Source: Liolophura sinensis
Lineage: Eukaryota; Mollusca; Polyplacophora; Chitonida; Chitonidae
Assembly (NCBI RefSeq): GCF_032854445.1
Contig: NC_088304.1
Span: forward strand, 19,133,850-19,197,849
Reading direction: 5' to 3'
Length of the DNA stretch: 64,000 nt
The translations under genes were made by a program, and so were the position numbers. The notes beneath the pieces are model-generated. The model saw only the letters and a list, made by a program, of their open reading frames with translations, did no database searches and was not told the DNA's origin. Below, piece by piece: positions 112 through 64,000 of the stretch. How positions within the stretch are numbered: the first letter of the stretch is position 1; each line of letters begins with the position of its first letter.

Positions 112-312
112 CCTGTACTCGTGTAGGTACTTCTCCAGGTTATTCTCCAGGGTGGACTTGGCCTGCTCTGCCAGCCTTAGCTCCTCATCCTTGCTGAGGA
201 AGGATTGCTCCATCTCCTGTAAGTGAGACTTCAGGTGACACTCCGTCTCCTCCAGCTCGTGACATCTCTCCTTCACAGTCTGTAGCTCCTGGATCTTCAC
301 TGTCAACTTCAC
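112..312 (-). CDS. CIT: CIT coding exon 10 (start of coiled coil)
   Basis: It encodes residues 478-544. The heptad-rich sequence [20 protein letters not shown] to [13 protein letters not shown] aligns with the start of the citron coiled coil (KELQDSQDKCHKMEQE to LLEQDLATYITEC). The acceptor is GTGCTCAG|GTGAAG and the donor TACAGG|GTAAGT, phase 0. The donor is followed at once by a 22-bp tandem repeat that copies it. Confidence 0.93.

Positions 313-64000: not shown

What the first reader, a model, noticed from the sequence alone, without database searches (positions are those of the whole stretch)
112..63983. Recurrent tandem duplication anchored on exon-intron boundaries, in at least two neighbouring genes
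Seven separate boundaries (CIT exon 10; SLF1 BRCT entry, serine-rich exon, 47.7 kb exon, 43.0 kb exon, and two ankyrin exons) each have tandem copies that include the splice site plus 10-80 bp of adjoining exon. Unit lengths differ (22, 69, 115, about 114, about 100, 52, 71 bp), so these are independent events. Chance placement of arrays within 28 kb of introns would rarely hit junctions so precisely. Either exon edges seed the duplications, or exon-containing duplications persist because the extra splice signals are tolerated.
Basis: partly seen in the sequence, partly recalled or inferred. Interest (0 to 1): 0.88.

Follow-up and report, generated by a model that had tools for sequence, protein, structure and literature searches.

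The report
Splice-junction tandem duplications in chiton genes
In a stretch of chiton DNA full of short tandem repeats, several repeats duplicate the edge of a gene's exon together with its splice signal, a structure already known from amphioxus, and in this stretch they show no clear excess over chance placement.

Summary
The window is genomic DNA of the chiton Liolophura sinensis (two NCBI proteins map onto it exon by exon). It holds most of SLF1, the start of the citron kinase gene (CIT) and one unidentified gene. Junction-crossing tandem duplications are real. In the BRCT case the array is only intronic copies of an exon edge that is not in the window. In one ankyrin case the array abuts the donor and holds 1 bp of exon. 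The claimed precision is not supported: 7 of 62 junctions lie in locally duplicated DNA against 14.5 expected by circular shift, and duplication is rarer next to exons (11.5-13.6% of intron bases within 100 bp) than in introns overall (30.4%) or beyond 800 bp (54.7%). Placement tests that allow exon overlap give no significant excess. All 7 exon-touching blocks reach a junction, which suits neutral tolerance: the extra copy falls on the intron side and is spliced out. Amphioxus has the same structure, 'mirages'. Added here: mirages in a mollusc, and an intronic 30-bp minisatellite that seems to have grown from a duplicated exon edge.

The parts
1..120 (-). CIT donor mirage: 22-bp units; used donor after base 112; 9 bp of exon in the array
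   Evidence: TRF; exon by homology
37136..37503 (-). SLF1 exon 18 acceptor mirage: 71-bp unit x5.1, 98%; used acceptor at 37160; four further copies keep AG
   Evidence: TRF; junction exact; sequence
40483..41675 (-). 52-bp array abutting the SLF1 exon 16 donor (41675); exon sequence is not part of the unit; G of the donor-like GT is A in 3 of 19 anchored copies
42834..42980 (-). SLF1 exon 14 donor (42968) and its diverged copy about 100 bp into the intron; 13 bp of exon
44173..44262 (-). Weak duplication over the SLF1 exon 12 acceptor (44203), 46 bp x2, 75%; AG lost in the intronic copy
47688..48727 (-). SLF1 exon 9 acceptor (47729): three copies of acceptor plus exon start (exon-like parts begin at 47729, 47843, 48686)
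47903..48663 (-). 30-bp minisatellite (25 copies) between the outer two copies; its unit resembles exon 9 from base 32 (19 of 30 identical, ungapped), where AAAAC recurs 30 bp apart in the exon
54748..54977 (-). SLF1 serine-rich exon donor (54894) mirage: 115 bp x2, 89%; 84 bp of exon
63609..63985 (-). 69-bp array: five full intronic copies plus a partial one of the end of the first SLF1 BRCT exon and its donor; all six donors read CAG|GTRAGT; the real exon is outside the window

Best explanation
These are 'mirages': ordinary local tandem duplications, in introns already rich in minisatellites, that happened to span an exon-intron junction. A duplication with one breakpoint in the exon and one in the intron leaves the reading frame intact as long as the spliceosome uses the copy next to the exon body; the extra exon edge and splice signal lie in the intron and drift as neutral DNA. 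Duplications inside exons or removing a junction are purged, so surviving exon-touching repeats reach a junction. Shown: the duplications, the exon-proximal copy in the NCBI models, decay of several of the other copies, and no positional excess in this window. Inferred: neutrality, correct splicing in vivo, and slippage or unequal exchange as the mutational route.
For: Duplicated DNA covers 30.4% of intron bases and 2.9% of exon bases; by distance from the exon edge 11.5% (1-25 bp), 13.6% (26-50), 12.2% (51-100), 54.7% (801-3000). Seven of 62 junctions are in it versus 14.5 (sd 3.7) by circular shift, P(<=)=0.023. All seven exon-touching blocks reach a junction (9, 25, 1, 13, 31, 42, 84 bp of exon) and none found at this sensitivity is exon-internal. 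NCBI models P0001/P0002 use the exon-proximal copy in the six SLF1 cases whose junction is in the window. Intronic copies decay: copy B of exon 9 meets a stop after 14 codons in the exon frame; the first full copy of the 69-bp array has two stops in the frame of its donor and the frame of the partial copy upstream meets a stop just past its donor; the exon 12 copy lost its AG; the donor-like G of the 52-bp array is A in 3 of 19 anchored copies. Unit lengths 22, 115, about 100 and 71 are not multiples of 3 (69 and 114 are). The same structure with the same reading is reported for amphioxus.
Against: With exon overlap capped at 84 bp (a cap taken from the data) the touching count is slightly above the null (7 versus 5.5, P=0.31), so a modest excess is not excluded with 62 junctions. 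Nulls that forbid exon overlap show an excess: edges 8 versus 3.0, P=0.009 (cap 0), spanning arrays 5 versus 1.1, P=0.007 (cap 30 bp), though the data contradict those nulls. All six donors of the 69-bp array are intact, and one of its full copies against the three below it shows pS about 1.4-2.2 times pN. AG or GT is kept in most other copies. No RNA data were available.
Confidence: 0.85

Rival explanations
1. Splice junctions are hotspots: the junction motif (CAG|GTRAGT, or the pyrimidine tract) supplies microhomology or structure that seeds tandem duplication.
For: Seven junctions in the window and one just outside are affected in about 48 kb of gene; in the 69-bp case the unit carries GTGAGTGAT, which resembles the codons for LSD just upstream of the repeated exon part (inferred from protein P0002 only). 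Edge counts exceed nulls that forbid exon overlap.
Against: No enrichment at junctions or edges under nulls that allow exon overlap, and depletion near exons.
Confidence: 0.08
2. The extra junction copies are functional: decoy or alternative splice sites kept by selection, for example in-frame 23-aa units of the 69-bp array used to vary the BRCT domain.
For: 69 is a multiple of 3, four of five full copies are open, six of six donors are intact, and pS exceeds pN in 5 of 10 copy pairs.
Against: The first full copy and the partial copy above it carry stops, so use of a more distal donor would probably include a stop (the frame beyond 64000 is not seen); pN exceeds pS in the other 5 of 10 pairs; the donor G of the 52-bp array is no better kept than the columns before it; most other units break frame.
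Confidence: 0.04
3. Assembly artefact.
For: Arrays can be miscounted in assemblies.
Against: The published assembly of this species was made from HiFi reads averaging 8,347 bp (passages), longer than every array here (longest 2.7 kb); copies differ by 2-25% in the TRF rows at junctions. That the window comes from that assembly is inferred.
Confidence: 0.03

Closest known systems
Amphioxus 'mirages' (Adh3, TnC, globins BflGb6 and BflGb9, PGBD5): PMC3087553 and PMC3902484, passages seen
   Same: Minisatellite-like tandem duplication of intron-exon boundaries, at 5' and 3' boundaries, with varied unit length (10-160 bp reported); many copies keep AG/GT.
   Different: A mollusc instead of a cephalochordate; several in one gene; in amphioxus regular splicing and length instability were tested (as reported in those passages), here neither; here one duplicated exon edge seems to have seeded a further 30-bp minisatellite.
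[quoted passage not shown] potato RdRp case, PMC4974935, passages seen)
   Same: The duplication crosses an intron-exon boundary.
   Different: No new intron was formed in the models used here; the copies just lengthen an existing intron.
Ordinary intronic minisatellites
   Same: Period, copy number and divergence fall in the range of the other arrays in the window.
   Different: The unit includes coding sequence and a splice signal.

Membership tests
mirage (tandem repeat spanning an exon-intron boundary) | Tandem copies that include exon sequence, the splice signal and intron sequence | tested here: met
   CIT donor 112; SLF1 donors 54894 and 42968; acceptors 47729 and 37160; weakly acceptor 44203. 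Not met for donor 41675. For the BRCT array only by protein comparison with an exon outside the window.
mirage (tandem repeat spanning an exon-intron boundary) | Copies lie on the intron side and the exon-proximal copy is used | tested here: met
   NCBI models P0001/P0002 for the SLF1 cases; the CIT donor rests on homology plus GT-AG. Models, not RNA.
mirage (tandem repeat spanning an exon-intron boundary) | Normal splicing shown by RNA | not testable with these tools
   No RNA data at hand.
mirage (tandem repeat spanning an exon-intron boundary) | Length instability between haplotypes | not testable with these tools
   One haplotype only.
intron gain by tandem duplication | A new intron whose splice sites come from the duplicated copies | tested here: not met
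   In the SLF1 cases the copies only lengthen one intron of the NCBI models; relatives were not compared.

The most novel reading that the evidence does not exclude
Exon edges are a recurring source of new intronic minisatellites in chitons: junction-spanning duplications first copy coding sequence into introns, then internal microhomologies (as AAAAC...AAAAC, 30 bp apart, in SLF1 exon 9) expand it, so a sizeable share of intron arrays genome-wide would be decayed exon edges.
Probability: 0.12. Interest if true: 0.55.

Novelty: new member of a known kind. Interest (0 to 1): 0.3.

Why it matters
It shows that mirage structures, reported in the papers found here only from amphioxus, also occur in a mollusc with minisatellite-rich introns, and that in this window their positions need no special mechanism. 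It gives concrete junctions where cryptic splicing and intron gain could be tested, and one likely birth of a minisatellite from coding sequence.

Tried and rejected
Enrichment of arrays at junctions: tested four ways and not supported for this window. One search left out copies closer than 40 bp to the junction and gave 5 of 62 junctions versus 21% of 1500 random positions (20% at the higher threshold of 40); the union mask corrects this to 7 of 62. The null that forbids all exon overlap gives P=0.009 for edges within 50 bp and 0.017 within 25 bp, and the 30-bp cap gives P=0.007 for spanning arrays; both nulls forbid what is observed (up to 84 bp of exon), so I gave them little weight. Coding selection on the 69-bp array: mixed (pS above pN in 5 of 10 pairs, below in 5), not supported in view of the stops. 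Conserved decoy donors in the 52-bp array: no sign; in the looser anchoring (20 copies) the G is 85% and the T 100% conserved, columns before them 70-95%; the columns that look invariant after them in the first anchoring are so largely by construction of the anchor. Exon origin of other arrays: 22 consensus units from 21 of the 34 arrays compared with all exons plus 30 bp of flank; the four high scores (z 8.6, 20.5, 30.4, 46.7) belong to arrays that lie on or next to the exon they match, as they must; the next best is z=2.1; the 69-bp array (exon outside) gave 1.0 and the 30-bp array only 1.5; the latter is supported only by in-register comparison of the copies. The CIT array 4-120 and 12 others were not in that comparison. 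Literature: searches in an open-access library; beyond amphioxus I saw no report of mirages in the listings; of the listed papers I looked at passages of PMC3087553, PMC3902484, PMC4974935, PMC12783039 (earthworm intronic minisatellites and exon duplications, no boundary repeats in the passages) and PMC3862624 (Conus introns, nothing relevant in the passages). The original Adh paper and Gao and Lynch are not held and are known here only through their citation in PMC3087553, as is a 2007 paper on human introns from tandem arrays.

Full report
What the window is. A rough SLF1 protein built from minus-strand open frames found two NCBI proteins of the chiton Liolophura sinensis. Mapped back, P0001 and P0002 match the window exon by exon with GT-AG introns; the differences shown sit at exon ends, where alignments run over a junction. 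SLF1 covers 35849 to beyond 64000 on the minus strand; its first 40 residues are not encoded in the window. The BRCT part also matches a solved SLF1 structure, 8ir2, and Pfam finds BRCT and ankyrin domains. Minus-strand exons from 12.7 to 0.1 kb encode the start of citron kinase. A third, unidentified gene with coiled-coil-like frames lies on the plus strand at 19.1-26.5 kb; its 8 junctions, the 17 CIT junctions and three SLF1 ends (acceptor of exon 1, donor of exon 7, acceptor of exon 8) were placed by me from frames, homology (CIT) and GT-AG. In all, 62 junctions: 37 SLF1, 17 CIT, 8 third gene. A small CIT exon may be missing between 5414 and 312.

The observation. TRF gives 55 rows, which I merged by hand into 34 arrays covering 12.1 kb. 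Adding local alignments (60-base tiles against 2 kb on either side, score at least 44; 0 of 600 shuffled controls reached it), 23.4% of the window, 30.4% of intron bases and 2.9% of coding bases are locally duplicated. Seven junctions are inside duplicated DNA: CIT donor 112; SLF1 donors 54894, 42968 and 41675; SLF1 acceptors 47729, 44203 and 37160.

The statistics. It does. Circular shifts of the junctions against the duplication mask give 14.5 hits on average; 7 are observed. Random placement of the 34 TRF arrays gives 6.6 junction-spanning arrays, 5 observed; with exon overlap capped at the observed 84 bp, 2.8 expected, P=0.14. Placing the 35 genic blocks inside genes gives 11.4 touching exons unconstrained and 5.5 with the cap; 7 observed, P=0.31 with the cap. 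Nulls that forbid exon overlap do show an excess (P=0.007 with a 30-bp cap; P=0.009 with none), but they rule out the very overlaps that are seen. Duplicated DNA is scarcer within 100 bp of exons (11.5-13.6%) than beyond 800 bp (54.7%). What does stand out is the reverse side: all 7 exon-touching blocks reach a junction and none found lies inside an exon, as purifying selection predicts. With only 62 junctions a modest excess cannot be excluded.

The anatomy. In each SLF1 case whose junction is in the window, the copy used in the NCBI model is the one next to the exon body. At exon 9 there are three copies of acceptor plus exon start, at 47729 (used), 47843 and 48686; all three pairs align better than any of 2000 shuffles (z 5.4 to 9.4), and the middle copy meets a stop after 14 codons in the exon frame. 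The outermost copy runs into a 25-copy, 30-bp minisatellite whose unit matches exon 9 in register at 19 of 30 bases, and the exon has AAAAC at offsets 32 and 62, exactly 30 bp apart. So the likely history is: junction duplication first, then expansion of a microhomology-bounded piece of the copied exon. A global comparison of that unit with all exons was weak (z=1.5), so this rests on the in-register evidence. The 71-bp array at exon 18 is young (98% matches), the other TRF arrays at junctions older (75-89%).

Do the copies do anything? The 69-bp array was the best candidate: in-frame unit, six intact donors, four of five full copies open. But its first full copy has two stops in the frame of its donor, the partial copy above it leads into a stop just past its donor, and amino-acid changes show no consistent deficit (pS above pN in 5 of 10 pairs, below in 5). 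In the 52-bp array the donor-like G is A in 3 of 19 anchored copies and no better kept than the columns before it. I read the copies as neutral, without RNA evidence.

What is known. [quoted passage not shown] PMC3902484, one passage). The potato RdRp case (PMC4974935, passages) shows that such a duplication can create an intron; the models used here show none. My searches listed no report outside amphioxus that I recognised as the same thing, in an open-access library only and mostly from titles and the start of abstracts. The genome paper (PMC11068029, passages; species corrected to L. sinensis in PMC12441733, whole text) reports 27.89% repeats; the word 'tandem' does not occur in its main text.

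Verdict. Real, partly as described, no clear positional enrichment in this window, best explained by neutral tolerance in minisatellite-rich introns; a new member of a known kind, in a mollusc.

Noticed in passing
50651-49863: NCBI splits SLF1 into two genes: P0002 ends by reading through the exon 7 donor and P0001 starts at an internal methionine of exon 8.
   Followed up: partly
7704-8067, 10550-10942, 11293-11523, 20089-20566, 24940-25246, 27657-27973: A dispersed repeat, in both orientations, whose translations share [27 protein letters not shown] words (open-frame lists); not identified.
   Followed up: no
19092-26540: Unidentified plus-strand gene with coiled-coil-like exons between CIT and SLF1.
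   Followed up: no
37136-37503: The 71-bp unit boundary is an inverted repeat (CAAAAC TG GTTTTG), a possible breakpoint feature.
   Followed up: no
1873-4536: A 62-bp array of 43 copies fills 2.7 kb of a CIT intron; its unit shows no similarity to the exons.
   Followed up: partly
63431-63466: A short translated stretch (ASKVAQLGDVCL) resembles the BRCT exon end (75% over 12 residues, E 0.59); perhaps a further decayed copy, perhaps chance.
   Followed up: no
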